Source: a virus
Direction: 5' to 3' (one strand)
IMG/VR virus record: IMGVR_UViG_3300030102_006008
Location: 1 to 34,707 of that record
Length of the DNA stretch: 34,707 nucleotides
Numbering within the stretch: position 1 is the stretch's first letter; the number at the start of each line of letters is the position of its first letter. The notes under the pieces are model-generated. The model was not told the origin of the DNA, ran no database searches, and worked only from the letters and a program-made list of their open reading frames with translations. Position numbers and translations under genes: made by a program. This document shows positions 15,789-33,615 of the stretch, piece after piece.

Positions 15789-18700
15789 TTAGTACTCTGC
15801 TTTTAGTTCAGTAATTCGTGAAACGTGTGCAGAAGTAGTAACTCCAGAAAGTGGATTGTCTTTTTGGAATACAAACGATGATCCATTTCTAGATCCTGTA
15901 ATGATTTTACCCCAACTGAAGTTTCCATATCTCTTAATATTGAAGTTATCGGGTAAAGCAGTGTTTACTCCTACAACAGAGAGAACATTTGCAGATACAA
16001 GTTTTGCATCTGTTCCAGCAATAGCAACAACGTTTGAAGCACGATAAACATTATCAATGAAATCTGCTCCATTTGCAACGACAGTAGATACATCTCCATC
16101 AATTGAAGTAACACCACTACCAATTCTAGTATTTCTGACTACGAAATAATCTCCTGTAGAAATACCGGTGCTTGTGACCTTGTTTGCTGCTGAAAGTCCT
16201 GAGGGAATGAAAATCTCTGGGTCTGGTATAACTCTAAACTTAAGTGTGTCTAATGAGTCAATTGCGCCAGATTCACCAGAGGCAAACTCTGTGATATCTT
16301 CAATAAGTCCGTAGTCACCTTCATATGTAACTTGCTGAATCGTTTCAACAGTTGGAATAGTCAATCCAATTCCAGTTGCTCCTACAAGTCTGATATCCTG
16401 TTGTGTTTGTCCAAGGTTATCAATTTTTTCAAATGACCAGGCATTTTCAACAGATATTGAAGTGTCCGTATCACCAACAGGTGCGATAATATTAGTTGAT
16501 GGATAATACTGTGGTTCAAGAGAGTTTCTTGCTTTTGAGATAGAACGACCATCAATAATAACGTCAGAAGTTTGTTTGGTCCATTCTACAGGTCTCAGGA
16601 ATGCAGTATCGGTATTGATGCCAACACCTGTATAAGTTTCAGTCTCAACAGTATCAGAGGCAATTAATTCATAGATAACTCTCTGTTCCTGACTAGCAAA
16701 AGGATCTTGATATTGGAGTCTCAGTCTGTCACCACGTTTGATTGTCTCATCAATATCAACTTTAAGGAAGTCATCTTCAGAACCAGTATAGAAGTAAATT
16801 TTAAAATTACTTCCTGCTCTTGGTGCTTCTTTAAACTTAAGTCTTGTGCCACCATTGAATTCATAATCAACTCCTGGTTTTTGGAGAACATCATTCATGA
16901 ATATTAAGAAGTTATTTTGGAGTATGATACCAGAACCTTCTTTGGCAACAATACTGTAGAATTCTTTGGTGGTTTCTGTTCTGGTGATGAGGAAGTTAGT
17001 TTTAGCACCATTAAATCCGATACTAAAATCGTCTAACTCAAGAAGTTGACCAAATGCCCATCCAGAGAACTTATCTTGGAACTTGTTATCAACAGTTACC
17101 AGCATATTGGTAGAACCAATTCCAACCGGATCGAATGGTAGACCACTCAATTCAAGAACATCACCCTCTTTGTATCCAATGCCACGCTTAGACATACTGA
17201 AACTAATAATGCTACCGCCAGTTCCAACAACAACGTCCATCTCAGCACCAGAACCAGTACCACCCGTCAATGTGAGACCTTTGTATGGTGCAGGTTCGTC
17301 TGTAAATATTTGAGGTGGTGTTGCCTGAGTATATCCAGTACCACCAGATACAACAGTGAATCCGGTGATTGTTCCACCAGCACCAACTGTTGCGGTAACA
17401 GCAGCACCTGTTCCACCACCCAATGTGTCTGCAATCGAGACATTCGGTGCGAATAAGTGACCGCCACCACCAGAACGAACACCGGTACTGCCAACACCAA
17501 CTGTAACTCCAGTAATTACACCAGAACCATTTACTACTGCAACACCGATAGCACGAGCAGGAACAGCATAATTTGTGCCAGAAGTTGCTGTAAACTCATT
17601 GATAATACCACCTTGGGGAAGATCACCAATTGGTCCAGTTCCAGTGAAATCAAGATCCTCTCCGGTATTTGTTTTTACAACTCTATAATCAGATTTCAAG
17701 ATAGAACCAACATCACCAAAGAAAGGTTTCTGGAAGACATTGTTAATCAGAACTGCACCATGACTAGTAGTGATACCAGTTACTGCGACACCACTGCTGA
17801 TCATTGCAAATTGATCAGCAGTACCATTGAAGGATTCGGAAATATCATCAAGAATTATATTTTTATCATAGTTTAATCTATAAAAAATTCTACCTGAGAA
17901 TGTTGATCTAGTTGTTATACCAACAACACCAGCAGGTCCATATGGTGCATCACTGAAGTAAATCTTACCCTGCTTGATCCTGTAATCGCCTGTAACGACG
18001 CTGCTAGCAGCACCAACAGTATGTGCAGCAGCAACTGTTCCCATTGCTCCACGTTGGACATTAAGAACGTTACCTGCGTTTACGAGATCAACTTTAATAA
18101 TCTCCCCATCTTCAAATCGCAGCAAGGACTTACCTAAAATCTTCGATGAATCACTGACTGTAATCTGAGTTGAACCAATTCCAACTGCCTCAGACATAGT
18201 GATAGCAACACCTACTGGTTTTACTGCAATAGGACTTTGTATGATATTGTCAATCGTGATCATACTTCTAGTAGTTGCAAGATCACCCTCGGTAGAGAAT
18301 GATTGAGTTGAACCAATACCAACACTATTAGTAAATGATACAAATCTTCCAAGTGCTAAGTCTGCTGTACTAATAGCAACTTTAAACTGGTCCTTAGTTA
18401 CTCTTATTGCAAATACCTTATCTGGAAGAAGAGTGGTAAGACCAATGCCAGGAACACTGGTAGATCCAATACTCAAACGAGATCCAGTATTGATACCAGC
18501 ATTTGTTGGATCATATACAAGTTCTTCACCAGTATTAAATTCATGATCTGTAATTGTGATTACACTGCTGCCAACACCAGTCGCAGGATTGACTGTATGG
18601 TGAAGCATTGACTTACCATCAGTTAATATGGTAAAAGTGCTCAGACCAACAAGTTGACCAGCAGAGTTTCCAACACCATTAAATTGAGGACCAATATCAT

Positions 18701-21700
18701 CAATCATTAGAACTTTATTAGTTCTGGATTCATTGTAATCAGTAATTACCTTAGAATCAAATTTGATGATCTTAGAAAGTCCTACTGATTCTGTATCTTC
18801 TGAAGCAAGATCATAACTTGTTCTTGAATGTACCGATGCTTCATTTTCAATATCCACCAGAAGATTAAACTGTGCTGTGTCCGCAATTGAAACATTTGCT
18901 TTCTTTGGCGGGAAAGTAATAATTTGGAAGTCTGAGAAGTTCTTATACCCAGCAGTATGGTCTAAACTATCAACAGTCTCTTCCCAAGTTTCTAGTGGAA
19001 TTTCACCACGGATACTGTATGAGAATCTTTGATAGTAATCATTATCATGAATTCTTTGGAGATTGTCATTCATTTTACCAATATCATCTTTCCACACCCC
19101 AGCATCTCTTGAAGTGCTTCCCACATTAAAATCAAAGTCGAACTCAGTAATTTCAGAAATAGTTGCTTTAAAGTTACCTACGGTGCCACGAACAACTGTA
19201 TCCGCAGTGAACTTACCATTGACACCATTCAATCTCAGTATGCCTGATTCTTCATCCCATCCATCTTGTGCTACAATACCAAATATGTTTGGATCATTAG
19301 CATCAACAATTATTTCTCCTTCTGTGAATCGAATGACATCAAATTCTGGTTTGAATGTTGCCAGATCGGTTGCTTTAATTACTCTACCAAACTGTGCATT
19401 CTGAGCAATGTTATAGTCTCCACCGGTAAAACCTAAACCAGTAATATTATAACTAACACTTTCAGTACCAGCAACAGTATTGATAGCAGTCACTTCAAAG
19501 GTTCTGAAACCGTAATCACTTGAATTGTATCCGTCTGCAAGAGAAGCATTAGTGATCTGGATGTTTTCTACAAAGATTTGATCTCCCACTTTGAATGGGA
19601 AATTGTCTCCAAATCCAGCAAGAGTTTGTGGTGCTTTGAGTGAAATTTCATTTACACCAGAAGCAGAGGTAGCATTAACAACACCAACTCCATTTGAGTT
19701 ATTGGTTGCAATAACCCTAAGATCTTCTCTCAGATTACTATCACTGGAGATAACTTCAACTTCTCCAACAGAACCACCCTCAAGTGTTGTTTTTGTAATT
19801 ATGCTGTCGTTTCCAATTGCAATAACTTTTGGTGGAACATTGTAATCATTACCAGCAGTAACAATACCAACTCCCTTCAATGTTCTGATATTTTTAAGTC
19901 TCATTACAAGAGAACTATCTGTTTTTGGTTTGATAGTTGTATCTTCTGAGAAATCAATACCAGGAATAGTGACTAATGCATCTGTAACTTCGCCAATATC
20001 TGTATTCGTTATCTTCAAGTCTGCATTGACTCCTGTGGTGGTTCCTATGGATGTAATTGCTGGGAACTCTTTGACGTTATTACCATCATTTACCACCTTA
20101 ACTGAATGAATTCCACCAATAGCAGTTGCTGAACTGGTAGAATAGAATCCAGTGCTGAATCCCGCAGGAGTGTAAGATGTTGTCTCGGCAGAACCAACCA
20201 AAGTAAAGGTAAAGGTAGTATCTCCAATTCCTGTGATCTTATAGTTTTGATTGAACTTAGATTCTACTTTGGTGATAGTAGAGTAATTATCTACAGTTTC
20301 ATCTACAGATGTTGGATATGTGTTTGTATATTGTACATCATCTCCTTCAATCCTATAATAGAAATTATTTAAAAGATCTTTGTCAATATCAACTATAATT
20401 TGTGTACCAGCAACACCGTCACCAATTACTCCGTCTCTCTTAATATTAGTGGATTCGTATCTACACTGGAAGTCATTATCTTTATAGAAATTGATATCAT
20501 ATCCAGAAAGACTTACATCTGAAGTATTCAGTGCAAATCTTCCGCCATTGATAATCTCAATCTTTGGATTTATTTTTGCAACTTCATGAGTTCCATGTCC
20601 TTGCTGAGTAATAATGATATTCTTGAATGGGAACTCCAATGCATCAACTCTTGTTTCTGCAAGTCTAAACGTATCCTCATCAATCTTAATTGCATAATAC
20701 TCTCTACTGCTCTGGAGGGGTGTTGCAACACCAACAGCATTTGTATAAACAACAAGATCACCGGTATTCAATCCGTGTTTTACGGATACGATATCTGATG
20801 CAATAGTTGTGATTCCAGTAGGAGCAAAGGTCTTGGGATCTACAACCAGTTTATTCAGATCTGTATTAAATTTAAGGACAAACTGTTGAACTTTATTAGG
20901 AGTTATACCAAATGTAACTTCATCTCCCAGTTGCAATCCATGAGCAGTTGCAACTCCAACGTCAGCAAATACTTTTCTAACAGTGCCTGTAAGATTATCT
21001 TTTACCTGTTGCAGTGTGTGATTATCTCCTGTAGAAGCAGCAACAAAGTAAATCGTGGAGTTGATACCAACGAATGCCTTAGAAGTTGCAATTCCGATAA
21101 AATCAGTACTTATCTTAAGTGCAAAGAGAGAAGTTGTAGAGATATCAAAGGGATTGGATAAGTCTGACTTTGCAGAAGCACGAATTGTTCCTCCAACAGA
21201 GACAATACTCAGTTGATCACCAGTATTAAACTTGTGTCCAGGAAGGAAAATTGCACGATCTGGAATTGAAACCGTAATATTTGAACTTCCAGCAACTCCA
21301 ACAACAGATGAAAAATAAGTAGCACCTATACCAATAGCAGATTTTGCAAAGTTTTGTTGATGCCCGATCTGTATATTTTTATTTTCTAACTCTTGATCAA
21401 TAATGAATCTGAAAACCTGGGGTTGCAACCTAACGATAGAATTTGTTCCATGATTACTTCCGGTACTATCATTAACGACTCTAGTAACTCTATATTTGTT
21501 GTTGACATTATCAACGCCAACAATCTTCATCAACTCATCATTGACCCTGATAATATTGCCTACTTCAAATTTATTTGTAAATGTAGAAGCACTTAGTGAA
21601 ATTGTAGTAGTAATACCAGTCGCTGTTGTTTGACCAATTGCCAGTGTGGTATTGGTTATTACTGTAGCAACCCCAACAGGAGTAAATCCTTCAAGGTTTT

Positions 21701-24700
21701 TGTAAATTGCAGAACCAATGCCAGTGATTTCAACAATATCACCATCGAAGAAACCATGTGGAATTGTAGTAACACCAGTGACTACATTACCTCTAACACT
21801 AAAGATAGTATTTTTCAGTGTAGTATCAGAAGTTGCAATGGAGACAATATCTTTTCCCTTTACTTCAGCAATTTCAACATCAATTGATTCTTCATTGAAG
21901 TTGATTTGTTCACCAACCTTATAATCAGAACCAGAATTCAGAACGTCAACAGAACCAACCCTGGATGGTTTAATGTCTTGAATGGTAACTTTTACATCAG
22001 AAGACATGGAATCATTTAAGAAGACATACTCCCTAGAAGGATCATTCAATCCGAGGTGAGTTACATTTCTCTTATACTCACCAGTATTGATCGTTGAATC
22101 TGCTTGACTACGAAGAGAATCGTAGTTGAAAGTGTCAGTTTGATTGTAGTGTGACTTTGTAATATATGGATATGCAAGACCAATGATGGAAGAGAAAGTC
22201 TCGGAATTATCTATAGTGGAGAAATATGCATATGTTCCTTCAGGGAATTCATCTGTTTTGCAGAATCTTCCATTATACTCATCAAGATCACCAGTTGCTT
22301 TATAAACATAGTCTTGGATAAAGAATCCATCATCAAATCCAGGTGGTCTGAGTGAAGTAGAACTTTCTAAATCAAGTTCATAACTTGATAACATTACTTT
22401 AGTTCCACCAGTATTTGCACCATCAAATACTGCATTCGCAAAACCATATGGACCATAGATTGGATTACCGTCATATGCCCATCCAACTATTGGGGAGTGA
22501 GCAAATCCTGTGGTGATTTCATCTCCATTACCATCAAGGTTATCTTTTAATATACCACGATAGTGTGCTCCGGGATAGAAAGACACTAACTTGGTTTGTT
22601 TTAGAGGAGTTCCAGAATTAATCTGAACCATCTCTCTATTCAGTCTATCCTTTTTCAGGATTGAAGAATTATCTAGTTGGAGTGCTACTTTATATCTTTC
22701 TACATCATTGAATGCCCATTCATGAATCTCTGGACTCAACTGAGCATTGATACCAGTTGGGATGACTTCTATTCTTGTATTTTCAGCATACCCACTACCA
22801 CCATCAATAACATTGATTGATGTTATTGAACCATTTGTAATATTAGCAGTTAGTTTTGCTAACTTGCCTGTACCAATAACATTAATTGTTGGGGGAGATG
22901 TATATTCTATACCCGCATCTGCAACATATGCTGAAACAATTTTTCCATTAACAACAATTGCTTTAACGTCTGCTCCCTTTCCAGTCTCGACCTTAACTTC
23001 AATGTCTCTCTTGTAGTTCATTACATTGGACACACCGTATCCAACACCACCATTTCTGACAAATACATTGTCAAGTTTTCCAAGGATTACAGGAGAACCA
23101 ACAGCAGTATAGTAAGAAGGAACAACATCAGTATTTCCAGCAGAAACAATTCCATTAATCTTAACAGTGATTGCTGGATACTGGAACGTATGTGTACCGA
23201 CACCCACACTGGTAAGGTTTACATAAGATTTTTTATCAAAATTAACACTACTGATAGCGGTTGGTGTTCCTGCTTCACTTAGGAGGAATCTGTCCTCATC
23301 TAAGACGGTTACCTTGTAATTTGCCGATGTTGACAATCCACCAATAATAGTACCATCAAATGAATACTCTACATTGTCACCAGTTTTGAAAGAGTGATTC
23401 CTTGCGTAGATATAATTCTGCTCAATATTGACACCTACAAAAGATTTGTAAATATCTTTCTGATCTGCTGGTGGCCATGCTATACCATCTACAACCACTT
23501 TCCTACTAGAGAAGTCATCAGTAGAACTTGTAACAACAATTCTGTCAACGATCTTTCTCTGATTTCTAGATCTGAAGTTATGAGTGCCAGTCCCAAAGTC
23601 ATTTATATTGACTGTGTTAATACCAGCTACTGCATCAGATTTTGATACATGGATTTTTACATCAGTGGCACTGACTTTTCTAAGGAAGTATATTGCTTCT
23701 GATGTCAGTCTATCTGTTCCAAATCCAACTGAGGTGCTACCAATACCAATAGGAGTTCCAGTAGAGGAATATATGACCTCTTCAGTATCTGCAAATCTAT
23801 GCCCAGGAATACTGATAACATCACTAGCAAGTTTTACACCATCAAAATCGCTGAATGACTTATCATAGAAGAATCCTCTAAGTCTTGCTTCAGCAGTCGC
23901 TTCTGTTCCATTTCCTCCAGAAATTGTAACAACAGGAGTTTCTACGTAATTAAAACCAGGAGCAGTAAGATTAATATCTTCAATCTTTCCTATAAATTGT
24001 CCCACAAAAGCGGCACCAGCACTTCCATCAGTATTTGCAATTCCAATTTGTGGTGGATTTACAATATCATAACCAGTTCCTGAATTTAAAACATTAATAG
24101 AGTCAATCTGACCATAGAAAATAGAATCCTTTGAAATTGGTGATTGAAATTCAACACCATTTAAAGCAACACCAATTGGTCCAATAATATCTTTATGTTC
24201 AGTTGCTGCTTTTGGTTTTCTATTGATTCTCTTGAAATTATTCTGATTAACCAGATTTCTATTAAACAGAGATGCCGGAGTCAGTTTGTGCTCACTACCT
24301 GCACTAACACCAGTAAAATTAATAAAAACTTGATTATTAAGAGAAGCACGACTGAATGCTAGTTTTATATTGTTTATGTCAATTATAAAAACATAATAAT
24401 TTCCTGTCGCAATACCAGTAACACCAGAGGTTAATTCATAATATACTCTTTCACCATTTCTGAAATTATGATTGGGAATATTGATCTTATTATTAACTTG
24501 ATCTATATCCGATTCAGTAAAAGTTTTAGATCTATTCGTCAGTTCTATGTTATCGTAACCAGGAAGTCCTGAGAAGGCAATATATGCATTCTTGTCTGCA
24601 TCAATAAAACTATTTTGTATATTTGCTAAAACACCATCAGCATTGAGTTTATCAGATCCAAAATCAAGTTTTTTCCTGATGAGATAATCCTTAGTGTTGA

Positions 24701-26450
24701 CAAAAGTATTACTTATATTTCCAGAAACCGTAAATGTTTTTCTGTTGTCTACATCAGAAACATCCAGATTTTCTTCTAATACAGATTTATTATTTTTCAG
24801 CAAAATATCAACTTTGTCGCCCTTGTATAAGTGGTGGTCAACTTCGGTCGTAAACGTTGTTCCACTAACACTATCAACAGACGTAAGCACTACATTGTTG
24901 TAGAACCATCTGTTAAATCTAACATCATCTTCATCTACTTTTTCGCCAAGATGCTTCACTCGAAGCACATCATTTTTTCTGAACTGACTCGTGTCTTTTT
25001 TGTTTTCTGCAACTCCTATGACTGTACCAACAACTCGCATAGTGACGAGTTTGTTGATATCGTTATTCTCATAACCATATACAAAGTTTCCATCAATAAT
25101 TGAATCATTTTCTGCAAGAGTCGTAGAAAGTCCTACACAGTTAAAGAATTGATTAGCACTCTTACTTTCATATGTAACTGATTCCAATCCTTCATTGTTC
25201 TTATTAAGGAATGAACCACTTTCTGGGAATCCAATAGTCGAATCAACAGTTAGAGTTGTATTTGTAACACCAACACCTAAGACTTTAGTCTTCTTGCTGA
25301 CTATAAACTTATTTTCAATAGTATTCTTAGGGAAGAATAACTTATGATAATATGTTGAACCTAAGAGTATAGTTTCAACTCTTGAAATGATAGCCTTTGC
25401 AGTTGGATTATCAATTGATCCCTGAAGTAAAGTAGTTTCTCCAAGATTTCTTGGATTTCCTTCAATTGCCTCTACAACCACCACATCTGACTGCGAGAAG
25501 TCGGCAGCAGATGCCTGAATTGTATTATCAAATGGTTTCAGAACCTCAACGAATTTTCCAAAGAGAACAGTAAAGAGAATTTTCAATGAAGTGTCAGTTC
25601 CCTTTGAACTGTAAAAATCTCTTGCTCTTGAAAGGATATTATCGATATTAACGCTTTGGAATTGCCTCTCTTCAATACCAGGCAAGAACATCTTCTTGTA
25701 CTTGATGAAAAATTCTGCTAAGAATACCAGACCAAGATTAGTAAGAGTCGTTCCTGCTTCATGGAATGCAGTTCGACTATTATTAAAGTTTAAGAACTCT
25801 CCACTGACATCATCAATGCCAGAAAATCCCCTAACACATCCAGTGAAGGCAAAATTGGTAGCAGTAGGAAGAGTTGCACCTAATGGGTTAGTTTCGTCAA
25901 GATCTAATACATCATCAAGAGTAGTTGGGTCATCAGAAATTGTAATAGTGTTAGAATCTATAACTTCTGTGACATAATACGTCTGACCAGCAATAACATT
26001 GGAAAATGAAGTATCAAAAATAATACTTTGCGATCTAAACGAATCTAAACCGACAGTAGATGTCAATTTGATGGTATTTGCAGTCGGATCAACTAAAGTG
26101 ACCTTTTGGGAAAAAGATGATTTACCAGTATACGTAAAAATCTCTTGATCAATTTTTACAAGTCCATTTTTTGGCAAAAATCCCGAATGATTGGTAACTT
26201 CAATCAAATCATCGTTGTTTGAAACAAATTTAGTCAGTTTTGGTGTAGTTGTAGTAAATTTGAGATTTACGTAACTATCAACATCCTTTAATCTATCAAT
26301 ATTCTCTGCAAGAAAGATTGTTCCGTACTCATGTTCCTGAGACAGATAGTATTGCTCTAAAAAGTCTTTAAAGAGTGGATTATCATCTAAAATAAATTCT
26401 GGAAGTTGACTTTCCAGAATATTGGAGATTTTTACTTTACTATCTGACAT
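15789..26450 (-). CDS. Giant baseplate wedge protein, gp7-like (3553 aa)
   Basis: This single uninterrupted ORF fills nearly a third of the window. Its N-terminal region matches T4 gp7's later part: NPLFKDFLEQYYLSQEHEYGT (about residues 24-44; T4 has FEAFCEAYIQYLSDGYGTQ), FLAEFFIKYKKMFLP, and RARDFYSSKGTDTSLKILF (about 270; T4 ESRSYDFYSTKGIEASYKFLF). Position between gp6 and gp8 agrees. The rest is repetitive beta structure: about nine units starting H-x-F/L-x-x-G-D/E-x-V, at least nine GxGY units, and several RGxxGT modules (for example NVQRGAMGTVAAAH). There is a YHYH-like domain at about 1319-1410 (PIVGWAYDGNPIYGP; FPEGTYAYFST) and a NDVLQKPGVDYEF hairpin near 3190. T4 gp7 is 1032 aa. It probably builds and decorates the wedge. 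ATG 26450 lies 3 bases after the gp6 stop. Confidence 0.83.
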   Translation of the reverse strand: MSDSKVKISNILESQLPEFILDDNPLFKDFLEQYYLSQEHEYGTIFLAENIDRLKDVDSYVNLKFTTTTPKLTKFVSNNDDLIEVTNHSGFLPKNGLVKIDQEIFTYTGKSSFSQKVTLVDPTANTIKLTSTVGLDSFRSQSIIFDTSFSNVIAGQTYYVTEVIDSNTITISDDPTTLDDVLDLDETNPLGATLPTATNFAFTGCVRGFSGIDDVSGEFLNFNNSRTAFHEAGTTLTNLGLVFLAEFFIKYKKMFLPGIEERQFQSVNIDNILSRARDFYSSKGTDTSLKILFTVLFGKFVEVLKPFDNTIQASAADFSQSDVVVVEAIEGNPRNLGETTLLQGSIDNPTAKAIISRVETILLGSTYYHKLFFPKNTIENKFIVSKKTKVLGVGVTNTTLTVDSTIGFPESGSFLNKNNEGLESVTYESKSANQFFNCVGLSTTLAENDSIIDGNFVYGYENNDINKLVTMRVVGTVIGVAENKKDTSQFRKNDVLRVKHLGEKVDEDDVRFNRWFYNNVVLTSVDSVSGTTFTTEVDHHLYKGDKVDILLKNNKSVLEENLDVSDVDNRKTFTVSGNISNTFVNTKDYLIRKKLDFGSDKLNADGVLANIQNSFIDADKNAYIAFSGLPGYDNIELTNRSKTFTESDIDQVNNKINIPNHNFRNGERVYYELTSGVTGIATGNYYVFIIDINNIKLAFSRASLNNQVFINFTGVSAGSEHKLTPASLFNRNLVNQNNFKRINRKPKAATEHKDIIGPIGVALNGVEFQSPISKDSIFYGQIDSINVLNSGTGYDIVNPPQIGIANTDGSAGAAFVGQFIGKIEDINLTAPGFNYVETPVVTISGGNGTEATAEARLRGFFYDKSFSDFDGVKLASDVISIPGHRFADTEEVIYSSTGTPIGIGSTSVGFGTDRLTSEAIYFLRKVSATDVKIHVSKSDAVAGINTVNINDFGTGTHNFRSRNQRKIVDRIVVTSSTDDFSSRKVVVDGIAWPPADQKDIYKSFVGVNIEQNYIYARNHSFKTGDNVEYSFDGTIIGGLSTSANYKVTVLDEDRFLLSEAGTPTAISSVNFDKKSYVNLTSVGVGTHTFQYPAITVKINGIVSAGNTDVVPSYYTAVGSPVILGKLDNVFVRNGGVGYGVSNVMNYKRDIEVKVETGKGADVKAIVVNGKIVSAYVADAGIEYTSPPTINVIGTGKLAKLTANITNGSITSINVIDGGSGYAENTRIEVIPTGINAQLSPEIHEWAFNDVERYKVALQLDNSSILKKDRLNREMVQINSGTPLKQTKLVSFYPGAHYRGILKDNLDGNGDEITTGFAHSPIVGWAYDGNPIYGPYGFANAVFDGANTGGTKVMLSSYELDLESSTSLRPPGFDDGFFIQDYVYKATGDLDEYNGRFCKTDEFPEGTYAYFSTIDNSETFSSIIGLAYPYITKSHYNQTDTFNYDSLRSQADSTINTGEYKRNVTHLGLNDPSREYVFLNDSMSSDVKVTIQDIKPSRVGSVDVLNSGSDYKVGEQINFNEESIDVEIAEVKGKDIVSIATSDTTLKNTIFSVRGNVVTGVTTIPHGFFDGDIVEITGIGSAIYKNLEGFTPVGVATVITNTTLAIGQTTATGITTTISLSASTFTNKFEVGNIIRVNDELMKIVGVDNVNNKYRVTRVVNDSTGSNHGTNSIVRLQPQVFRFIIDQELENKNIQIGHQQNFAKSAIGIGATYFSSVVGVAGSSNITVSIPDRAIFLPGHKFNTGDQLSIVSVGGTIRASAKSDLSNPFDISTTSLFALKISTDFIGIATSKAFVGINSTIYFVAASTGDNHTLQQVKDNLTGTVRKVFADVGVATAHGLQLGDEVTFGITPNKVQQFVLKFNTDLNKLVVDPKTFAPTGITTIASDIVSVKHGLNTGDLVVYTNAVGVATPLQSSREYYAIKIDEDTFRLAETRVDALEFPFKNIIITQQGHGTHEVAKINPKIEIINGGRFALNTSDVSLSGYDINFYKDNDFQCRYESTNIKRDGVIGDGVAGTQIIVDIDKDLLNNFYYRIEGDDVQYTNTYPTSVDETVDNYSTITKVESKFNQNYKITGIGDTTFTFTLVGSAETTSYTPAGFSTGFYSTSSATAIGGIHSVKVVNDGNNVKEFPAITSIGTTTGVNADLKITNTDIGEVTDALVTIPGIDFSEDTTIKPKTDSSLVMRLKNIRTLKGVGIVTAGNDYNVPPKVIAIGNDSIITKTTLEGGSVGEVEVISSDSNLREDLRVIATNNSNGVGVVNATSASGVNEISLKAPQTLAGFGDNFPFKVGDQIFVENIQITNASLADGYNSSDYGFRTFEVTAINTVAGTESVSYNITGLGFTGGDYNIAQNAQFGRVIKATDLATFKPEFDVIRFTEGEIIVDANDPNIFGIVAQDGWDEESGILRLNGVNGKFTADTVVRGTVGNFKATISEITEFDFDFNVGSTSRDAGVWKDDIGKMNDNLQRIHDNDYYQRFSYSIRGEIPLETWEETVDSLDHTAGYKNFSDFQIITFPPKKANVSIADTAQFNLLVDIENEASVHSRTSYDLASEDTESVGLSKIIKFDSKVITDYNESRTNKVLMIDDIGPQFNGVGNSAGQLVGLSTFTILTDGKSMLHHTVNPATGVGSSVITITDHEFNTGEELVYDPTNAGINTGSRLSIGSTSVPGIGLTTLLPDKVFAIRVTKDQFKVAISTADLALGRFVSFTNSVGIGSTQSFSTEGDLATTRSMITIDNIIQSPIAVKPVGVAITMSEAVGIGSTQITVSDSSKILGKSLLRFEDGEIIKVDLVNAGNVLNVQRGAMGTVAAAHTVGAASSVVTGDYRIKQGKIYFSDAPYGPAGVVGITTRSTFSGRIFYRLNYDKNIILDDISESFNGTADQFAMISSGVAVTGITTSHGAVLINNVFQKPFFGDVGSILKSDYRVVKTNTGEDLDFTGTGPIGDLPQGGIINEFTATSGTNYAVPARAIGVAVVNGSGVITGVTVGVGSTGVRSGGGGHLFAPNVSIADTLGGGTGAAVTATVGAGGTITGFTVVSGGTGYTQATPPQIFTDEPAPYKGLTLTGGTGSGAEMDVVVGTGGSIISFSMSKRGIGYKEGDVLELSGLPFDPVGIGSTNMLVTVDNKFQDKFSGWAFGQLLELDDFSIGFNGAKTNFLITRTETTKEFYSIVAKEGSGIILQNNFLIFMNDVLQKPGVDYEFNGGTRLKFKEAPRAGSNFKIYFYTGSEDDFLKVDIDETIKRGDRLRLQYQDPFASQEQRVIYELIASDTVETETYTGVGINTDTAFLRPVEWTKQTSDVIIDGRSISKARNSLEPQYYPSTNIIAPVGDTDTSISVENAWSFEKIDNLGQTQQDIRLVGATGIGLTIPTVETIQQVTYEGDYGLIEDITEFASGESGAIDSLDTLKFRVIPDPEIFIPSGLSAANKVTSTGISTGDYFVVRNTRIGSGVTSIDGDVSTVVANGADFIDNVYRASNVVAIAGTDAKLVSANVLSVVGVNTALPDNFNIKRYGNFSWGKIITGSRNGSSFVFQKDNPLSGVTTSAHVSRITELKAEY

Positions 26451-26453
26451 TTC

Positions 26454-28364
26454 TTATCGAGTGAATTTTCTGCTACTGGTGAAACTTGAAGGAGGAATGT
26501 AATTAGTACCAGATCTGTTGGATCCAGAGGTAATCAAGTCTTCTTTCAACGTTAAAATACTTTTTCCTGTAGTATCTAGGACGATATAAAGATTCTCTTT
26601 TGCGACAATATCATTTGACTCAGGTGTGACCCCAATTTCAATACGATTATCAAGAACTGTCGATGAAATGTTGATTGGGAAAAGAATAATCTCACCTTTT
26701 ACGTAATCAACAGTTCCAGCATTCTCAATAACATTTACAATCTCTCTTTCTTCATTAAATTTGAAGATTGATATAGATCCAGTCTTTGGTGTGACCTGTT
26801 GGGGTCTTCCTGGGATGGTAATATCGGTATCGGGGACATCAGTCAAGAAGCAAGTTCCACTGATACCAGAAACTGTGAATCCAGATGATCTTAGATTGAA
26901 ACCTTCGACCTCAGCATGGAATGCATTTGCATAACAGAGTTCATAATTGGCAAGAGCGTTATATGCGGGGACCAAATTCCTTCTCATCACTAGATTTGTG
27001 ATATTTGAAGTAATTCCAGTATCAACATTATCAATTTGACGGAGAAGTTTACTATATTTCAGTCTTCCACCAAAAGAATTGATATCAGTAGACTTAGAGT
27101 AGGTTACAATTGCATTTGTAACTCTAGTAAACAGATCTTCTGTATTTGTAACAGTTCCTGGATCGTATGAGACTGTGCTATCATACTCTACATACAGATA
27201 TTTCAGATCTAAAAACTCTTGACGAATACCAGCAATGGTGTATTCCTTCAATTTACTCTTAATATTGTCTTTTGCGATATCAGAGAGAAAATCACCATTC
27301 TTAGGTTTGATTGTAATGAAGACTTTACCGTATTGTGGCGGATCTAGATCTTCACCACCATATGCAGAGACAGATTCGACGTTAGGATACAGAAAAGGTA
27401 TGAGTGAAGTGTAATCATCAGCAGTGACCGCTCTGTATTGCGATGCATAGACCCTAGGAGCAAGGTATTTGATAGTATCGATGTCTTCTATGTCATCACC
27501 CTGTTCCGCCGCTTGTAGGGTCGTTATGGCGGAGATGTTATTTGTTACATTTCGGTCTTTTCCTTCTTTTCTGGCAACTAATTGACCAGAGAACGTGAAA
27601 TTGCTTGCACCATTTGCTGCTTCACCACTTGTTTCAATATAAGTGACCTCAACCTTTGCTCCATTTGCAGGTCTCTTACCTAAAATGTTGTCTCCGAAGA
27701 GAATTTGGTACTTTTCATCCGAGATTTCTTGTACGAGATACAAACGAGTGTCGGAATTAACGTTAAAAATGTTTGTATATGGAGTATATTCTTCTATTGC
27801 AGTTCCAACGCTCCGAACACGGATAGTAGAGGTGTCAATATTCGGAGTTGGTAAGATATATTTCTGATCTGGTTGAGAATCATCGATTACAAAGGTCTTT
27901 TTCAGTAAGTTTCCTTCAAAAATCTCAATATTACTGAAAGTCACTACTCCTTGGGAGTTTGGACTTGCTGTAATGTCCTCTGGAATCGAGAAAATGTAGT
28001 TTGAGTTCTCTGCACCGCCCAGTGCAACCACACCTTTCTTCAATGTGACCGATCTAGCGTTAACTTGAGCACTGAAGGTGATCCTTGCAGTTGCCGATTT
28101 CTTCGATCTGGGAACATATCCAATATTTCTTGCTAATGATACGACATTTTCTCTCAATGTCGCACTATCAATGAACGATTCGTTCACTGCCATGTTAGTA
28201 TTGTAGGCAGTGATATAAGAATTATATGCTAACGTGTCGATTAAGATCGAAAAGTTCGATCCTTCAAAGTCGAAGTCCGTAAAATTACTATTCGACCGCA
28301 GATAATCCTTTATCTGCTCTCTGATATCATTAAAATCGAGATTGGTAAACTGATTGAATGCCAT
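26454..28364 (-). CDS. 6: Baseplate wedge protein, T4 gp6-like (gpJ family)
   Basis: This 636-aa protein forms the wedge dimers that make the continuous baseplate ring. The N-terminal signature FNDIREQIKDYLRSNSNF, DFDFEGSNFSILIDTLAYNS, NMAVNESFIDSATLRENVVS and ARNIGYVPRSKKSATARI (about residues 12-90) matches T4 gp6 closely (T4: DYDFEGSGLSTLIDVLAYN, FAINESFIDTA, KNLGYVPRSRKAA). Mid-protein features are FGDNILGKRPANGAKVEVTY (about 225) and APRVYASQYRAVTADDYTSLI (about 310), typical of the gpJ/gp6 family; VYGGEDLDPPQYGKVFI-type sequence follows. T4 gp6 is 660 aa, so length is normal and there is no repeat insertion. The start overlaps the gp25 stop by one base (TAATG). Confidence 0.92.
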   Translation of the reverse strand: MAFNQFTNLDFNDIREQIKDYLRSNSNFTDFDFEGSNFSILIDTLAYNSYITAYNTNMAVNESFIDSATLRENVVSLARNIGYVPRSKKSATARITFSAQVNARSVTLKKGVVALGGAENSNYIFSIPEDITASPNSQGVVTFSNIEIFEGNLLKKTFVIDDSQPDQKYILPTPNIDTSTIRVRSVGTAIEEYTPYTNIFNVNSDTRLYLVQEISDEKYQILFGDNILGKRPANGAKVEVTYIETSGEAANGASNFTFSGQLVARKEGKDRNVTNNISAITTLQAAEQGDDIEDIDTIKYLAPRVYASQYRAVTADDYTSLIPFLYPNVESVSAYGGEDLDPPQYGKVFITIKPKNGDFLSDIAKDNIKSKLKEYTIAGIRQEFLDLKYLYVEYDSTVSYDPGTVTNTEDLFTRVTNAIVTYSKSTDINSFGGRLKYSKLLRQIDNVDTGITSNITNLVMRRNLVPAYNALANYELCYANAFHAEVEGFNLRSSGFTVSGISGTCFLTDVPDTDITIPGRPQQVTPKTGSISIFKFNEEREIVNVIENAGTVDYVKGEIILFPINISSTVLDNRIEIGVTPESNDIVAKENLYIVLDTTGKSILTLKEDLITSGSNRSGTNYIPPSSFTSSRKFTR

Positions 28365-28762
28365 TATATCCTAGAAGGTTGTAAGAGGAACTCTATATTC
28401 TGTGTAGGGGTTGGTAATCCAACAATGTCATACTCAATTTTAATGAATAAGTCGTTAGAATCGGTCTGACACTCAGCAAAAACATTGGTCAGTTCGATTC
28501 TAGGTTCATAATTCTGCAGTAATGCAATAATTTCTTCCCTTAATACATCATTATCAAATGTATCTAATTCAAAAAGTGCATCAGCAACAGATGTTCCTAA
28601 AATATCATTGAAAAATCTTTCTCCAATTGCAGTTCGGACGAGATTTATGACAGATTTTTTGATTGCGTCCTCATTTTTGAGGACGGTCACATCGTTCGTA
28701 ATGGGATGACGCTTAAAAGAGAGACTAATATCCCTAAAACTACGTGAACGCTTAATTGGCAT
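28364..28762 (-). CDS. 25: Baseplate wedge protein, T4 gp25-like
   Basis: This 132-aa protein belongs to the GPW/gp25 family (lysozyme-like fold without activity), which links wedge to sheath and is shared with type VI secretion (TssE). Key parts are RDISLSFKRHPITNDVTVLKN, AIKKSVINLVRTAIGERFFN, LGTSVADALFELD and the C-terminal core NYEPRIELTNVFAECQ with LFIKIEYDIVG (T4: NYEPRIDKLAVNVIP). The EPR motif of the family is present at about residues 90-92. Length equals T4 gp25 (132 aa). A near-match late element (TATAGATA) lies 24 bases upstream of ATG 28762. The gene is directly coupled to gp6. Confidence 0.93.
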   Translation of the reverse strand: MPIKRSRSFRDISLSFKRHPITNDVTVLKNEDAIKKSVINLVRTAIGERFFNDILGTSVADALFELDTFDNDVLREEIIALLQNYEPRIELTNVFAECQTDSNDLFIKIEYDIVGLPTPTQNIEFLLQPSRI

Positions 28763-29498: not shown

Positions 29499-30135
29499 CA
29501 GGTGTTGTCCAGAAATAATCGTCACAATCACCTAGTCTTCCCCAGTTAGTATCGTTTTCAGTTTGGAAAATACGTGTCGATACCTTGAAATCAGGAATTT
29601 TAGGTTTTTCAGGAGTCATTGAAGTGTCATAGATGCGACATCTGTTGTTTGGATACAGGCAAAACTGACCATTTCTCAATTCAATCAGATTAAATGACTT
29701 ATGTTCATCAGGTAACTCACTCGTTGAAGCATCAATTTGATTGAAATCTCCATGATAGTTGTCTAAAGTACAAATGTAACTTCCTTTGAGGTTACCAAAG
29801 TGTCTTGTTCTGACTTCCCATTCCATTGGTGATACGAATTGTTTCTCGATCACAACGAAATCATAGTCCATACAGTTCCAAAACTGAAGATTTACCAGGT
29901 CCATATCAGGATCTGGTTTCTCTGGACGCGCTAGGAACGCCGATATGGGCAGTTTATCGAACATTGCACCATATTCAGGCAGATAGGTCTCAAAGTAGAA
30001 TGCACGTCCTTGTATGGACTTTGCACTAACCCAGATACCTTCTACGTATTCTCCATGTCCATCTTGAAAATCACGAAGATATTCTCTTCTCACCCATACC
30101 TTTTTTGTTGGTAGATTTGAAATTAACTTTGCCAT
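29479..30135 (-). CDS. Conserved hypothetical protein (218 aa)
   Basis: This soluble, aromatic-rich protein begins KLISNLPTKKVWVRREYLRDF, continues GHGEYVEGIWVSAKSIQGRAFYFETYLPEYGAMFDKLPISAFL (positions about 27-69), and then FWNCMDYDFVVIEKQF, YICTLDNYHGDFNQID and GQFCLYPNNRCRIYD. I recall closely similar conserved hypothetical proteins in T4-like cyanophages, which supports the host call, but no function is known to me. No catalytic motif is obvious, and the many Trp/Tyr/Phe residues suggest a beta-barrel-like or ligand-binding fold. Starts at ATG 30135, overlapping the end of the GNAT-like gene by 13 bases, and its own 3' end overlaps the next gene, so these genes are translated together. 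Confidence 0.68.
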   Translation of the reverse strand: MAKLISNLPTKKVWVRREYLRDFQDGHGEYVEGIWVSAKSIQGRAFYFETYLPEYGAMFDKLPISAFLARPEKPDPDMDLVNLQFWNCMDYDFVVIEKQFVSPMEWEVRTRHFGNLKGSYICTLDNYHGDFNQIDASTSELPDEHKSFNLIELRNGQFCLYPNNRCRIYDTSMTPEKPKIPDFKVSTRIFQTENDTNWGRLGDCDDYFWTTPDERQKE

Positions 30136-30563
30136 TCCTTAAAAAATTGCGATACTTCATAGCCGTCTAATTCTGATTTGTAATCAGAATCCTCACCCAA
30201 ATAAAAATAATCATATCCAAGTTTTTTATATATGGCACATTCGTTTTTTAATGACTTCTTACCAATATAAAGTTTTGGATTTTCATAGTCCCATGCAAAT
30301 TGGTCAGCAAAGACAGAATTAACACTATCAAAACGATAGACTAATGAAAATGCGACAAGTTTATCACCATCATAGTATCCAACGATATCAGAGTTATTCT
30401 GTTCAAACTCCTCACGAAAGATTGGTATGACACTATCAAACTCTTTGTAGTCACAATACTTGTGATAGATCTCAAAGCATTCTTTATAAAAAGAACTATC
30501 AAGAAGTTTGTAGTTAGAAACCTCCTGATAGTTTGTATCCTTTAATCTAATTCGACAATACAT
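30123..30563 (-). CDS. GNAT-fold / arginyl-transferase-C-like protein
   Basis: This 146-aa protein has the core of an acyl- or aminoacyl-transferase of the GNAT superfamily. DIVGYYDGDKLVAFSLVYRFD (about residues 59-79) is the central beta hairpin. Next, SVFADQFAWDYENPKLYIGKKSLKNECAIYKKLGYDYFYLGE (83-124) resembles the end of leucyl/arginyl-tRNA-protein transferases (ATE/Bpt), where a D-P-x-x-x-x-x-L-G-x-x-S strand precedes a helix and a K-x-L-G-x-x-Y-x-Y-L-G strand. It would transfer an acyl or amino-acid group to a protein or small molecule; the substrate is unknown. It is shorter than full ATE enzymes (about 230 aa or more) and lacks the Cys-rich N-terminal part. A GTAAATA late element lies 20 bases upstream. 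Confidence 0.6.
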   Translation of the reverse strand: MYCRIRLKDTNYQEVSNYKLLDSSFYKECFEIYHKYCDYKEFDSVIPIFREEFEQNNSDIVGYYDGDKLVAFSLVYRFDSVNSVFADQFAWDYENPKLYIGKKSLKNECAIYKKLGYDYFYLGEDSDYKSELDGYEVSQFFKEWQS

Positions 30564-30815: not shown

Positions 30816-31562
30816 TCAGATCACGCGCATTTTTTCATGCCCCACACGAATCACAGGGTCACACCAGATCTCGTAACCTTTCTCGATAGCATCAAGACAG
30901 AAACTCACATCCTCTCCACACATATCTTGGACCTCTCCTGATTCAAACGTCTGCATCTTCGGAGCAAACCAAGGATAAGGAAGACTCTCAAAGACTCCAT
31001 TCTTAATCAGAACCCATCCAAACCCGGTGTAATCAACGGTGAACGGTTTCTTACGCTTCGACATGGATTCACCAGTCTCATGGTTCATCACACCACCATT
31101 ATTACGGAAGTCTCCTTCTTCTAACCAGTGTGCCACAGAAGTCGTGCGACCATCTTCAGTCATATACCAACCAGCAGCAATATCTTTGTCCATTGCTACA
31201 AGACGGAAGAACTGCTCTGTGTTGAAGACAATATCAGAGTCAATCCACAACTGGTAATCGTATGGAAGATTACCATCCCATGGTTTCTGTGAAGGTCCTC
31301 TGAGAACATTCGCACCTAAACACTTACACCGTGCAAAGTTCACCATGGAACTGTAATCTTGACTGATCTGAATACTTGCACCAGACTGTACAAGATCAAA
31401 ACAGAGTTGTACGAAGTTCTTCAAGAATGTATATGAACAACCTCTACCAGGTAGACAGAACACCACTGTCTTACCACGAATCATTTCTTTTGCTGCCTCT
31501 AAGTTAAACTCTTCCTTCTTTGGAGTTGGTGCAGCAGTCTTTACTGTAAATCCTTTAGCCAT
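30816..31562 (-). CDS. GT-A-type glycosyltransferase
   Basis: This 248-aa protein probably transfers a sugar from a nucleotide-sugar donor. The start is ATG 31562 (MAKGFTVKTAAPTPKK); the slightly longer reading needs a TTG. The GT-A order is visible: a first Rossmann-like strand, KTVVFCLPGRGCS (31-43), then FLKNFVQLCFDLVQSG, the strand SIQISQDYSS, YDYQLWIDSDIVF (101-113) with the metal/nucleotide-binding D108-S-D110, VDYTGFGWVLIKNGVFE (177-192), and a GEDVSFCLDAIEKGYEIWCDP block (216-236) with the E/D catalytic region and RVGHEK (239-244). Cyanophages often carry such enzymes; roles proposed are virion or DNA decoration or host surface change. Here the target is unknown. It is a single-domain enzyme without membrane segments. 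A CTAAATA motif lies 65 bases upstream. Confidence 0.82.
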   Translation of the reverse strand: MAKGFTVKTAAPTPKKEEFNLEAAKEMIRGKTVVFCLPGRGCSYTFLKNFVQLCFDLVQSGASIQISQDYSSMVNFARCKCLGANVLRGPSQKPWDGNLPYDYQLWIDSDIVFNTEQFFRLVAMDKDIAAGWYMTEDGRTTSVAHWLEEGDFRNNGGVMNHETGESMSKRKKPFTVDYTGFGWVLIKNGVFESLPYPWFAPKMQTFESGEVQDMCGEDVSFCLDAIEKGYEIWCDPVIRVGHEKMRVI

Positions 31563-31627
31563 GCTCAACTGATATTGGATAATGTTATTATAACACGGAC
31601 AGTCACTCAGGTCAATGTCCGTACCAA

Positions 31628-32118: not shown

Positions 32119-32147
32119 ATTCTATCAGACTGCTGCCAGTTTGTCAA
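32119..32147 (-). promoter_or_regulatory. Sigma-70-type promoter (TTGACA-17-TAGAAT)
   Basis: On the minus strand a perfect -35 TTGACA (32142-32147) is followed after exactly 17 bases by TAGAAT (32119-32124), one mismatch from consensus. It lies at the very 3' end of the KxDG gene, with the stop codon TGA inside the spacer, and reads toward the small membrane protein and 48-aa genes. This is the only near-consensus host-type promoter I found in the window and probably marks an early transcript. Confidence 0.65.
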
Positions 32148-33015
32148 ACTTAGTGTTGTTGAAGTTAGCAACACTGAAGACCTTTCGTAAGACTAGTTTG
32201 TATACCTTACTGCCGTAGGAGTAGACATAACCCTCTGCCGTAATCCGATCATATCCGATATAAGCAGCAGGACCGTCGAGAACTCTACACTGATGATGCA
32301 ATTCCTCTTTGACATACTGAACCAAACCGTAGAGGTGCATGAGTGTTACATTGCCGTTAAAGTCCTCGACTCGCAGTGCATTACTCTCACGCAGCGTTCG
32401 GTTCACATTGATGCGAATCTGTGCTGCTTCCTTATCACTCACGAACTGCACGGTAGGTAACAACGTCATGATCGCAGTCATCGCTGGAGGTAACTCCCAC
32501 AGACCCGTGCAAGTAGGCATCACGAACCGGCAGCACACAGTGTTAGATAGTGGTTCACGCAATGGTTTAGCGACGGCATCACGTAGGGTCGTCTCAGTCT
32601 CATAAACCGTATGGGGTGCAACGATAATAACCTCGTCTACGATTTCGGGAAACTTGTAAGTAACTGTGTTCGGAGTATATTCATCACTACCGCCGAAACC
32701 GATAAAGTCACCTTGATAGATGCAATCTGTTTTAGGAAGATAATCTAAGCACAGGTGCAAAATGTTAGCAACCTCTCCGCTGTGGTTAGTATCAATGTCC
32801 TCATGAGATTCGTTGATCTTGATTCTTACTTTGTTGAAGACAGATTTGGTCCCCACAAAGAACTTACCCGTGGCAGGATTAGTGCCCCAAACGATAGCGG
32901 GTGCTCCGTCCATCTTAACACTTAGCGTGCCTTCGTTCTGTATAGCGTCCAGGAAAGAAAGGTCGCCGGTAAGGATAGAATCCTCAGGGTGTTCGATGTG
33001 GAGAATTGGAGTCAT
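32125..33015 (-). CDS. Ligase-like nucleotidyltransferase (KxDG), DUF6267-like
   Basis: This 296-aa protein has the ordered motifs of covalent nucleotidyltransferases (DNA/RNA ligase and capping-enzyme superfamily). Motif I is K34-M-D36-G37 in LSVKMDGAPAIVWG, where the Lys would carry AMP or GMP. A motif-III-like strand is IYQGDFIGFG (99-108). Motif IV is AEGYVYSYG (260-268), and motif V is VYKLVLRKVF (271-280). The opening HIEHPEDSILTG and the K-x-D-G-A/K-P-A core with GKFFVGTKSVFNK resemble the DUF6267 phage family as I remember it. It may adenylate RNA, DNA or another substrate; no separate OB-fold or zinc domain is seen, and length is short for a complete ligase. GC content is high (hand counts of 31/60 and 32/60 in two lines) compared with the baseplate genes. 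Confidence 0.65.
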   Translation of the reverse strand: MTPILHIEHPEDSILTGDLSFLDAIQNEGTLSVKMDGAPAIVWGTNPATGKFFVGTKSVFNKVRIKINESHEDIDTNHSGEVANILHLCLDYLPKTDCIYQGDFIGFGGSDEYTPNTVTYKFPEIVDEVIIVAPHTVYETETTLRDAVAKPLREPLSNTVCCRFVMPTCTGLWELPPAMTAIMTLLPTVQFVSDKEAAQIRINVNRTLRESNALRVEDFNGNVTLMHLYGLVQYVKEELHHQCRVLDGPAAYIGYDRITAEGYVYSYGSKVYKLVLRKVFSVANFNNTKFDKLAAV

Positions 33016-33050: not shown

Positions 33051-33401
33051 TCAGGCAAACACGTAACCGTTGGTGAAATCTTCTACATTGTAGACTTTAC
33101 CAGTGATGGAAGATTCTGCAATGAACTTGCGAACATACCACTTAAAATCTTTCTGAAATACACCTTCACCAGCAATGCAGAAAGCATCACATAAAGCGTT
33201 AAGTCTGCTCTTGGTAGTGTTGCTCTGGAATCCACCATCAAAGATCTTCATAGAGTCCTCATCAACGATGGCGATGAGGTTACCATGCAGGCGGATCAGA
33301 CTCTCGCCGGTTTCCTCGTTGAAGTGAACTGTGGTGTTACCTGAAGACCAATTAGCATTGTTCTGAACTGCTGCGTTCATTTGTGCTTCGATCTTACGCA
33401 T
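33051..33401 (-). CDS. Conserved phage protein with KSRLNAL motif
   Basis: This 116-aa protein starts at ATG 33401 (MRKIEAQMNAAVQNNANWSS). The frame is open 66 codons further to an ATG at 33599, but that part is basic, Pro/His/Lys-rich and holds repeated DNA words and promoter-like sequence, so it is probably leader. The body is a beta-rich domain: NTTVHFNEETGESLIRLHGNLIAIV (23-47), then MKIFDGGFQSNTTKSRLNAL (51-70) and GVFQKDFKWYVRKF (80-93). The F-D-G-G-x-Q-S-N-T-T-K-S-R-L-N-A-L signature is a recurring family in cyanophages, usually of unknown function. AAAGGA lies about 12 bases before the ATG. It directly precedes the KxDG gene. Confidence 0.72.
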   Translation of the reverse strand: MRKIEAQMNAAVQNNANWSSGNTTVHFNEETGESLIRLHGNLIAIVDEDSMKIFDGGFQSNTTKSRLNALCDAFCIAGEGVFQKDFKWYVRKFIAESSITGKVYNVEDFTNGYVFA

Positions 33402-33443
33402 GGTTGGTTGTGTTCCTTTGACTCTTTTAATATACACGGATTT

Positions 33444-33503
33444 GGGGTCCTGTGCCGTGTGCTTGTGCCACTTAATGGATTGGATTTTTTCCGGGGTCCT
33501 GTG
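33444..33503. repeat. Direct repeat GGGGTCCTGTG (two copies)
   Basis: The 11-base word GGGGTCCTGTG occurs at 33444-33454 and again at 33493-33503, 49 bases apart, upstream of the KSRLNAL gene. Flanking GGATT-type bases are also similar. In the open frame through this region the two copies are read in different frames, so the repeat is conserved as DNA, which suggests a regulatory or recombination site. Confidence 0.5.
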
Positions 33504-33615
33504 TGAATTTTTGTGGCGGTTCGGTTTTTTATACTTGACGCCCGTTAGATTACGCGCTAAGACCACAAGACCCGAGCACATTTCTAAGGTCATAAACACT
33601 ACTCAAACACTGCTA

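What the first reader, a model, noticed from the sequence alone, without database searches (positions are those of the whole stretch)
32125..33015. Phage protein with full set of ligase-like nucleotidyltransferase motifs
The sequence shows KMDG (34-37), a G-D-F strand (102-104), A-E-G-Y-V (260-264) and Y-K-L-V-L-R-K (272-278) in the order and rough spacing of motifs I, III, IV and V of covalent nucleotidyltransferases (DNA/RNA ligases, capping enzymes). Related phage proteins are usually left as domains of unknown function. If active it could be an uncharacterised RNA- or DNA-ligase, or an AMP/GMP-transferring enzyme, in a phage accessory region next to early genes.
Basis: partly seen in the sequence, partly recalled or inferred. 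Interest (0 to 1): 0.75.

Follow-up and report, generated by a model that had tools for sequence, protein, structure and literature searches.

The report
Ligase-like core enzyme of cyanophages
A protein of unknown function (DUF6267) found in nearly all T4-like viruses of marine cyanobacteria is predicted to have the fold and conserved active-site residues of the enzymes that seal broken DNA or RNA; these viruses were thought to carry no such enzyme of their own, so the prediction can be tested at the bench.

Summary
The 296-aa protein on the minus strand (32125-33015) has KMDG, GDF, AEGYV and YKLVLRK at the stated residues. It belongs to Pfam DUF6267 / phrog_455, function unknown. Across 189 distinct relatives down to 24% identity, K34, D36, G37, D103, E261, G262, V264, K273 and R277 are invariant wherever the residue is present. 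An AlphaFold2 model (pLDDT 85) matches polynucleotide ligases: all 50 best VIA-align entries are RNA or DNA ligases (NgrRnl Z 8.9, T4 Rnl1 7.8, Rnl2 7.6). It is therefore very likely a divergent covalent nucleotidyltransferase. It is not a canonical DNA ligase or capping enzyme: it ends 23 residues after motif V, leaving no room for an OB domain with motif VI, and the second lysine of motif V is replaced.

It is not an accessory gene. It occurs in nearly as many cyanophage records as the replicative helicase gp41. T4-like cyanophages have no recognised DNA ligase, a gap noted in print. In many phages it lies next to, or is fused with, an NMNAT-like nucleotidyltransferase; in several clades a restriction-endonuclease-like gene lies upstream.

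Most likely it is an RNA-ligase-like adenylyltransferase acting on nucleic-acid ends. Activity, cofactor and substrate are untested.

The parts
32125..33015 (-). DUF6267 protein, 296 aa: predicted RNA-ligase-like covalent nucleotidyltransferase
   Evidence: PF19782 E 2.6e-75; phrog_455 E 6.6e-115; AlphaFold2 model pLDDT 85.3, pTM 0.75; all 50 listed VIA-align entries are RNA or DNA ligases
32980..33000 (-). N-terminal signature H6-x-x-H9-x-E11-D12, conserved, role unknown
   Evidence: 98-99% conserved or better in 189 distinct relatives
32905..32916 (-). Motif I K34-M-D36-G37, predicted nucleotidyl-acceptor lysine K34
   Evidence: K, D and G in 187 of 187 relatives that cover the site; strand 30-34 ends at K34 in the model
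32830..32859 (-). Probable motif Ia strand FVGTKSVFNK (residues 53-62), invariant K57
   Evidence: K57 189 of 189; strand 52-55; motif assignment is by order and is inference
32704..32715 (-). Motif III equivalent Q101-G102-D103-F104 (Asp instead of the usual Glu)
   Evidence: D103 189 of 189, Q101 and G102 188 of 189; strand 99-107
32602..32613 (-). Motif IIIa equivalent H135-T136-V-Y138 (family-specific sequence)
   Evidence: H 188, T 189, Y 187 of 189; strand 130-139; motif assignment is inference
32224..32235 (-). Motif IV E261-G262-Y-V264
   Evidence: 187 of 187 relatives that cover it; strand 262-267
32185..32199 (-). Motif V K273-L-V275-L-R277 (second Lys of K-x-K replaced; invariant Arg two residues on)
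   Evidence: K273 and R277 187 of 187; V275 179 V, 8 I; strand 270-274
33051..33599 (-). Upstream neighbour, Kyano_Gp96 family (context only)
   Evidence: PF23790 E 3.6e-49
28364..28762 (-). Baseplate wedge gp25 (context: T4-like tail genes downstream)
   Evidence: PF04965 E 2.4e-8; phrog_261
26454..28364 (-). Baseplate wedge gp6 (context)
   Evidence: PF21379 E 5.4e-17; phrog_219 E 7.4e-194

Best explanation
The protein is a divergent, so far unrecognised family of covalent nucleotidyltransferase, closest in overall fold to RNA ligases. Predicted mechanism: K34 attacks the alpha phosphate of ATP (or NAD+) to form a lysyl-AMP intermediate, with D103, E261, K273 and R277 shaping the nucleotide and metal site. 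The AMP is then passed to the 5' phosphate of a nucleic acid, which is activated for sealing. It is a core gene of T4-like cyanophages and probably works with the NMNAT-like HIGH-superfamily nucleotidyltransferase encoded beside it, or fused to it, in many relatives. Shown here: family, conservation, predicted fold, distribution, linkage. Inferred: catalytic activity, AMP as the transferred nucleotide, nucleic-acid substrate, partnership. Likelihoods: fold and superfamily about 0.92; active self-adenylation about 0.8; sealing or adenylation of nucleic-acid ends about 0.6.
For: Motifs in the right order, with the key residues invariant at 24-30% identity. AlphaFold2 pLDDT 85 from a 59-sequence alignment; strands carry the motifs in ligase order. 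All 50 listed VIA-align entries are RNA or DNA ligases (NgrRnl Z 8.9, 180 residues, 3.9 A; T4 Rnl1 7.8; T4 Rnl2 7.6), and Foldseek's first 20 PDB hits are ligases although none is significant on its own. Among viral structures the best significant match beyond DUF6267 relatives and cytidyltransferase-annotated proteins is an RNA ligase (Atu_ph07, E 8.8e-4). Distribution: gp41 matches 376 Synechococcus-phage and 61 'Cyanophage' records, DUF6267 371 and 61, the NMNAT-like partner 374 and 61. The partner gene follows DUF6267 in 23 of 29 and 29 of 34 loci of two clades that hold 5.5 kb or more downstream, never upstream; in S-PM2 the C-terminal half of DUF6267 shares one frame with the cytidyltransferase. 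No known ligase family was found in S-CAM1 or P-SSM2 (PF01068, PF09414, PF01653); S-RIM2 and metaG-MbCM1 lack PF01068 and PF01653.
Against: No sequence-level similarity to any ligase family (Pfam, NCBIfam, PDB and hhalign searches). Z of 8.9 is close to the 7-8 that unrelated models reach. Motif III Glu is Asp and motif V lacks the second Lys, both usually needed in known ligases. No OB domain, so a canonical DNA ligase or capping activity is unlikely. Vibrio phage EniLVp02 and Stenotrophomonas phage DLP_6 carry DUF6267 as well as an ATP-dependent DNA ligase, so it need not be a replacement ligase. In the window's own clade the gene is not linked to replication genes. No biochemistry exists.
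Confidence: 0.62

Rival explanations
1. An active covalent nucleotidyltransferase that does not ligate: it uses the lysyl-NMP intermediate to put AMP (or GMP) on a protein or small molecule, for example as a virion-carried host-takeover enzyme.
For: No OB or other known nucleic-acid-binding appendage in the 296-aa form. The linked NMNAT-like protein has been detected in purified virions of several cyanophages (PMC9602691, PMC10665884), and both genes can be fused, which suggests a small-molecule or virion role.
Against: Overall fold matches polynucleotide ligases. In two clades the gene sits in the gp43-uvsX-gp41 replication region with a restriction-endonuclease-like gene upstream.
Confidence: 0.2
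2. An NAD+-using ligase: AMP is taken from NAD+, NMN is released, and the linked NMNAT-like partner turns NMN back into NAD+.
For: Near-universal co-occurrence, adjacency and fusion with an NMNAT-like protein (weak match to NadR, E 0.005). Conserved N-terminal H6/H9/E11/D12 segment lies where NAD+ ligases have an extra domain (position only).
Against: No match to the NAD+ ligase family in the protein or in the phage genomes searched. The NMNAT assignment is below curated cut-offs. The partner matches 525 phage records including enterobacterial ones, more than the 471 with DUF6267.
Confidence: 0.13
3. A catalytically dead or purely structural descendant of a ligase.
For: Motif III E to D and loss of the second motif V lysine.
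Against: Nucleotide-contact residues are invariant in all 187 covering relatives across deep divergence, which is not expected of a dead enzyme.
Confidence: 0.05

Closest known systems
Naegleria gruberi RNA ligase (Rnl5-type nick-sealing RNA ligase), PDB 6vt1/5cot
   Same: Best structural match, Z 8.9 over 180 residues; end points align K34 with K170, E261 with E312 and K273 with K326 to within a few residues (inference from alignment ends)
   Different: 11% identity; no N-terminal OB domain; motif III Asp; second motif V Lys missing; extra helices between motifs IIIa and IV
T4 RNA ligase 2 (Rnl2, PF09414) and T4 RNA ligase 1
   Same: KxxG-type motif I, AEGYV-like motif IV, K followed by an FS-containing tail after motif V; Z 7.6 and 7.8
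   Different: No Pfam match, no profile similarity, no C-terminal ligase-specific domain
ATP-dependent DNA ligase of T4 type (gp30, PF01068) and mRNA capping enzymes
   Same: KxDG motif I and the nucleotidyltransferase core (weaker matches)
   Different: Protein ends 23 residues after K273; no OB domain or motif VI
DUF6267 (PF19782) / phrog_455 / cyanophage T4-GC 71
   Same: Full member
   Different: Listed as unknown function; the ligase-like assignment was not found in the literature held

Membership tests
DUF6267 (PF19782) | Score above Pfam gathering cut-off (27 bits) | tested here: met
   254.6 bits, E 2.6e-75
Covalent nucleotidyltransferase superfamily | Motif I K-x-D-G with invariant lysine | tested here: met
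   187 of 187 covering relatives
Covalent nucleotidyltransferase superfamily | Motif III acidic residue on a core strand | tested here: met
   D103 189 of 189, strand 99-107; Asp, not the usual Glu
Covalent nucleotidyltransferase superfamily | Motif IV E-G-x-V | tested here: met
   187 of 187
Covalent nucleotidyltransferase superfamily | Motif V: conserved first lysine | tested here: met
   K273 187 of 187
Polynucleotide ligases (as characterised) | Motif V: second lysine of K-x-K | tested here: not met
   Position 275 is V (179) or I (8); an invariant R277 follows. For this reason it is not filed as a member of any characterised ligase family
Covalent nucleotidyltransferase superfamily | Nucleotidyltransferase fold | tested here: met
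   Predicted model; all 50 listed entries are ligases, best Z 8.9, 180 residues, 3.9 A. Prediction only, and Z is near the usual background of 7-8
Covalent nucleotidyltransferase superfamily | Lysyl-NMP intermediate | not testable with these tools
   Needs biochemistry
RNA ligase family PF09414 (Rnl2/Rnl5 types) | Sequence-profile match | tested here: not met
   No Pfam match up to E 1
RNA ligase family PF09414 (Rnl2/Rnl5 types) | Profile-profile similarity | tested here: inconclusive
   hhalign probability under 1%, but gp30 type vs Rnl2 type also failed
ATP-dependent DNA ligase / mRNA capping enzyme | C-terminal OB domain with motif VI | tested here: not met
   Only 23 residues follow K273; last element is helix 277-285
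NAD+-dependent DNA ligase | PF01653 adenylation-domain match | tested here: not met
   No match in the protein; none in eight phage records
NAD+-dependent DNA ligase | N-terminal Ia domain that binds NMN | not tested
   A conserved N-terminal H/H/E/D segment exists but was not compared with domain Ia

The most novel reading that the evidence does not exclude
DUF6267 is the missing ligase of T4-like cyanophages: a core, replication-associated nick-sealing enzyme of a new ligase family that takes AMP from NAD+ and is served by its own NMN-recycling partner, in some clades together with a diversifying restriction-endonuclease-like nuclease.
Probability: 0.1. Interest if true: 0.88.

Novelty: new variant of a known kind. 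Interest (0 to 1): 0.62.

Why it matters
[quoted passage not shown] A 2010 review states that homologues of the T4 DNA ligase gene are not found in them and that they either hold distant homologues not yet identified or lack them (PMC2984593). Here a gene present in nearly all of them is predicted to have a ligase-like fold and shown to have an invariant ligase-like set of active-site residues. That turns a hypothetical core gene into one with a specific, simple biochemical test, and ties it to an NMNAT-like protein already reported in virions and to an unrecognised family of restriction-endonuclease-like neighbours.

Tried and rejected
Chance motif: rejected. Sequence search of the PDB with the protein and with the profile: no ligase found. 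hhalign against Rnl5-type, gp30-type and Rnl2-type alignments: no signal, and the control pair gp30-Rnl2 also gave none, so it was not used either way. Canonical DNA ligase or capping enzyme: rejected for lack of an OB domain. Strict replacement for gp30: not supported as a general rule, since EniLVp02 and DLP_6 carry both. NMNAT identity of the partner: only weak (no solved relative by sequence). One viral-contig scan from the Vibrio protein and one from a Vibrio Rnl2 returned nothing. Literature search for DUF6267: no paper. The 41 hits in bacterial and archaeal genome contigs are mostly marine metagenome-assembled contigs and were not pursued as cellular genes.

Full report
What is in the sequence. 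The ORF lies on the minus strand at 33015-32125 and encodes 296 aa from an ATG. The window is most of a 45,957-base IMG/VR viral record of a T4-like cyanophage type: the neighbours include the Kyanoviridae Gp96 family upstream and baseplate wedge proteins gp25 and gp6 downstream, and the rest of the record holds a DNA helicase.

Family. The protein scores 254.6 bits against Pfam DUF6267 and matches phrog_455, both of unknown function. At E 1e-5, tblastn finds it in 465 phage records, nearly all cyanophages, with a few from Methylophilales, Pelagibacter, Vibrio, Pseudoalteromonas and Stenotrophomonas phages. Three scans of viral contigs gave 240 loci in three clades: A (window-like, about 300 aa), B (S-CAM1-like, about 398 aa) and C (DLP_6-like, about 410 aa).

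Conservation. In a 59-sequence alignment the invariant columns include K34, D36, G37, Q101, G102, D103, E261, G262, V264, K273 and R277. Among 189 distinct sequences with a median 28% identity to the window protein the same residues hold in every sequence that covers them, apart from one exception each at Q101 and G102. Other positions about as constrained are H6, H9, E11, D12, K57, N116, Y120, H135, T136, N205 and K236; they have no assigned role.

Fold. AlphaFold2 on that alignment gave pLDDT 85.3 and pTM 0.75. K34 ends a strand; D103, H135, E261/G262 and K273 lie on or at the edge of successive strands, as in ligases. Foldseek against the PDB gives no significant single hit, but its first 20 are all ligases. 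Re-alignment with VIA-align puts ligases in all 50 listed entries: N. gruberi RNA ligase Z 8.6-8.9, T4 Rnl1 7.8, T4 Rnl2 7.6, fungal Trl1 7.3, trypanosome REL1 7.1, archaeal RNA ligases 6.9, human DNA ligase I 6.5. Z alone is near background for unrelated models; the uniform identity of the hits, and the agreement with independently predicted motifs, carry the weight. Alignment end points imply K34 ~ K170, E261 ~ E312 and K273 ~ K326 of NgrRnl, and K99/E227/K240 of T4 Rnl1, within about four residues; for T4 Rnl2 (K35/E204/K225) the agreement is close for the lysines and within eight residues for E261 (inference from the printed ranges; catalytic residue numbers from general knowledge of these enzymes). 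In the viral structure library the best significant match beyond DUF6267 relatives and cytidyltransferase-annotated proteins is the RNA ligase of phage Atu_ph07 (E 8.8e-4).

What it is not. The chain stops 23 residues after K273, so the OB domain with motif VI that DNA ligases and capping enzymes use is absent. Motif III is Asp and motif V lacks the second Lys. No ligase profile in Pfam or NCBIfam matches. Profile-profile comparison with Rnl5-type, gp30-type and Rnl2-type alignments gave under 1% probability, but so did gp30 against Rnl2, which are accepted relatives. It is best described as its own family within the covalent nucleotidyltransferases.

Distribution. Using gp41 as a marker for T4-like phages, 376 Synechococcus-phage and 61 'Cyanophage' records match; DUF6267 matches 371 and 61, the linked cytidyltransferase-like protein 374 and 61. 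These are counts by first word of the organism name, not record-by-record pairing. No ATP-type DNA ligase, RNA ligase (PF09414) or NAD+-type ligase domain was found in S-CAM1 or P-SSM2; S-RIM2 and metaG-MbCM1 were searched for the two DNA ligase families only, also without a match. A 2010 review records that T4 gene 30 has no homologue in cyanomyoviruses and leaves open an unrecognised distant homologue (PMC2984593); a 2023 paper lists an unspecified 'ligase' among S-CREM2 genes (PMC10665884). EniLVp02 and DLP_6 carry DUF6267 plus an ATP-dependent DNA ligase, so the protein is not simply interchangeable with gp30.

Neighbourhood. In clades B and C the gene lies near gp43, uvsX and gp41 (cluster identities from the annotated members), and is followed on the same strand by a HIGH-superfamily cytidyltransferase-like gene in 23 of 29 and 29 of 34 loci with at least 5.5 kb downstream, never preceded by it. 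In S-RIM2 the two genes are one base apart. In S-PM2 the C-terminal half of DUF6267 and the cytidyltransferase share one frame, and a 591-aa S-PM2 protein named cytidyltransferase-like aligns with the model. The phrog_455 profile itself is 764 positions long with a cytidyltransferase-like C-terminal part. In clade A the two genes are unlinked, as in P-SSM2 (about 60.6 kb and 160.5 kb in record GU071092). The partner is called NMNAT-like in the literature and has been detected in virions of S-SCSM1, S-CREM2 and S-CBWM1, with the authors' caveat of possible carry-over. Its match to NadR here is weak (E 0.005).

The gene immediately upstream in clades B and C belongs to many unrelated-looking families, several of which share a D-x(n)-[SE]-x-K pattern. 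A model of one such family (pLDDT 89.7) has restriction endonuclease MspI as its best match (Z 7.2, 165 residues) followed mostly by other restriction endonucleases and Holliday-junction resolvases. This is one family of several; the others were not modelled.

Mechanism. Most likely K34 is adenylylated and the AMP is passed to a nucleic-acid 5' phosphate; RNA-ligase-like action is favoured over DNA-ligase-like action because of the missing OB domain and the fold ranking. An NAD+-dependent version, with the NMNAT-like partner recycling NMN, is attractive but rests on gene association only. Everything past the predicted fold and the invariant residues is inference.

Verdict. New variant of a known kind; interest 0.62.

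Noticed in passing
L243:5048-5953 and other loci of clades B and C, immediately upstream of DUF6267: Diverse proteins of about 200-480 aa, many with a D-x(n)-[SE]-x-K pattern; one family modelled and found restriction-endonuclease-like (MspI Z 7.2). No Pfam family matches the three tested.
   Followed up: partly
L247:10436-11539 minus strand (window record 44436-45539): 367-aa protein of the window's own virus (phrog_33928, unknown function) with a D...S-L-K segment like the nuclease-like proteins above.
   Followed up: no
L198:8964-13223, L165:10269-13229 and other clade C loci: The NMNAT-like domain sits near the start of very long proteins (up to 1,420 aa); the DLP_6 member also has a ParB-like stretch.
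   Followed up: no
NC_006820.1 (S-PM2) 103025-104804: DUF6267 is split over two frames in this record, while a 591-aa S-PM2 entry in the structure library covers it with the cytidyltransferase; possible sequencing error or frameshift in the older record.
   Followed up: no
NC_019443.1 (metaG-MbCM1) 145353-147539: 728-aa DUF6267-containing protein annotated as ribonucleotide reductase; probably a misannotation.
   Followed up: no
window 30123-30563 minus strand: 146-aa protein with a sub-threshold match to arginine-tRNA-protein transferase C-terminal domain (PF04377, E 1.3e-4).
   Followed up: no
window 30816-31568 minus strand: 250-aa conserved cyanophage protein (phrog_1574, unknown) with a weak glycosyltransferase similarity.
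   Followed up: no
window 15789-26450 and 6854-14221 minus strand: Two very large ORFs (3,553 and 2,455 aa) in the tail-gene region, not examined.
   Followed up: no
L367 / G008:C10:44537-45706: Full-length DUF6267 (E 2.7e-129) on a 188-kb contig of a Nonlabens xiamenensis assembly; virus contig or integrated virus not resolved.
   Followed up: no
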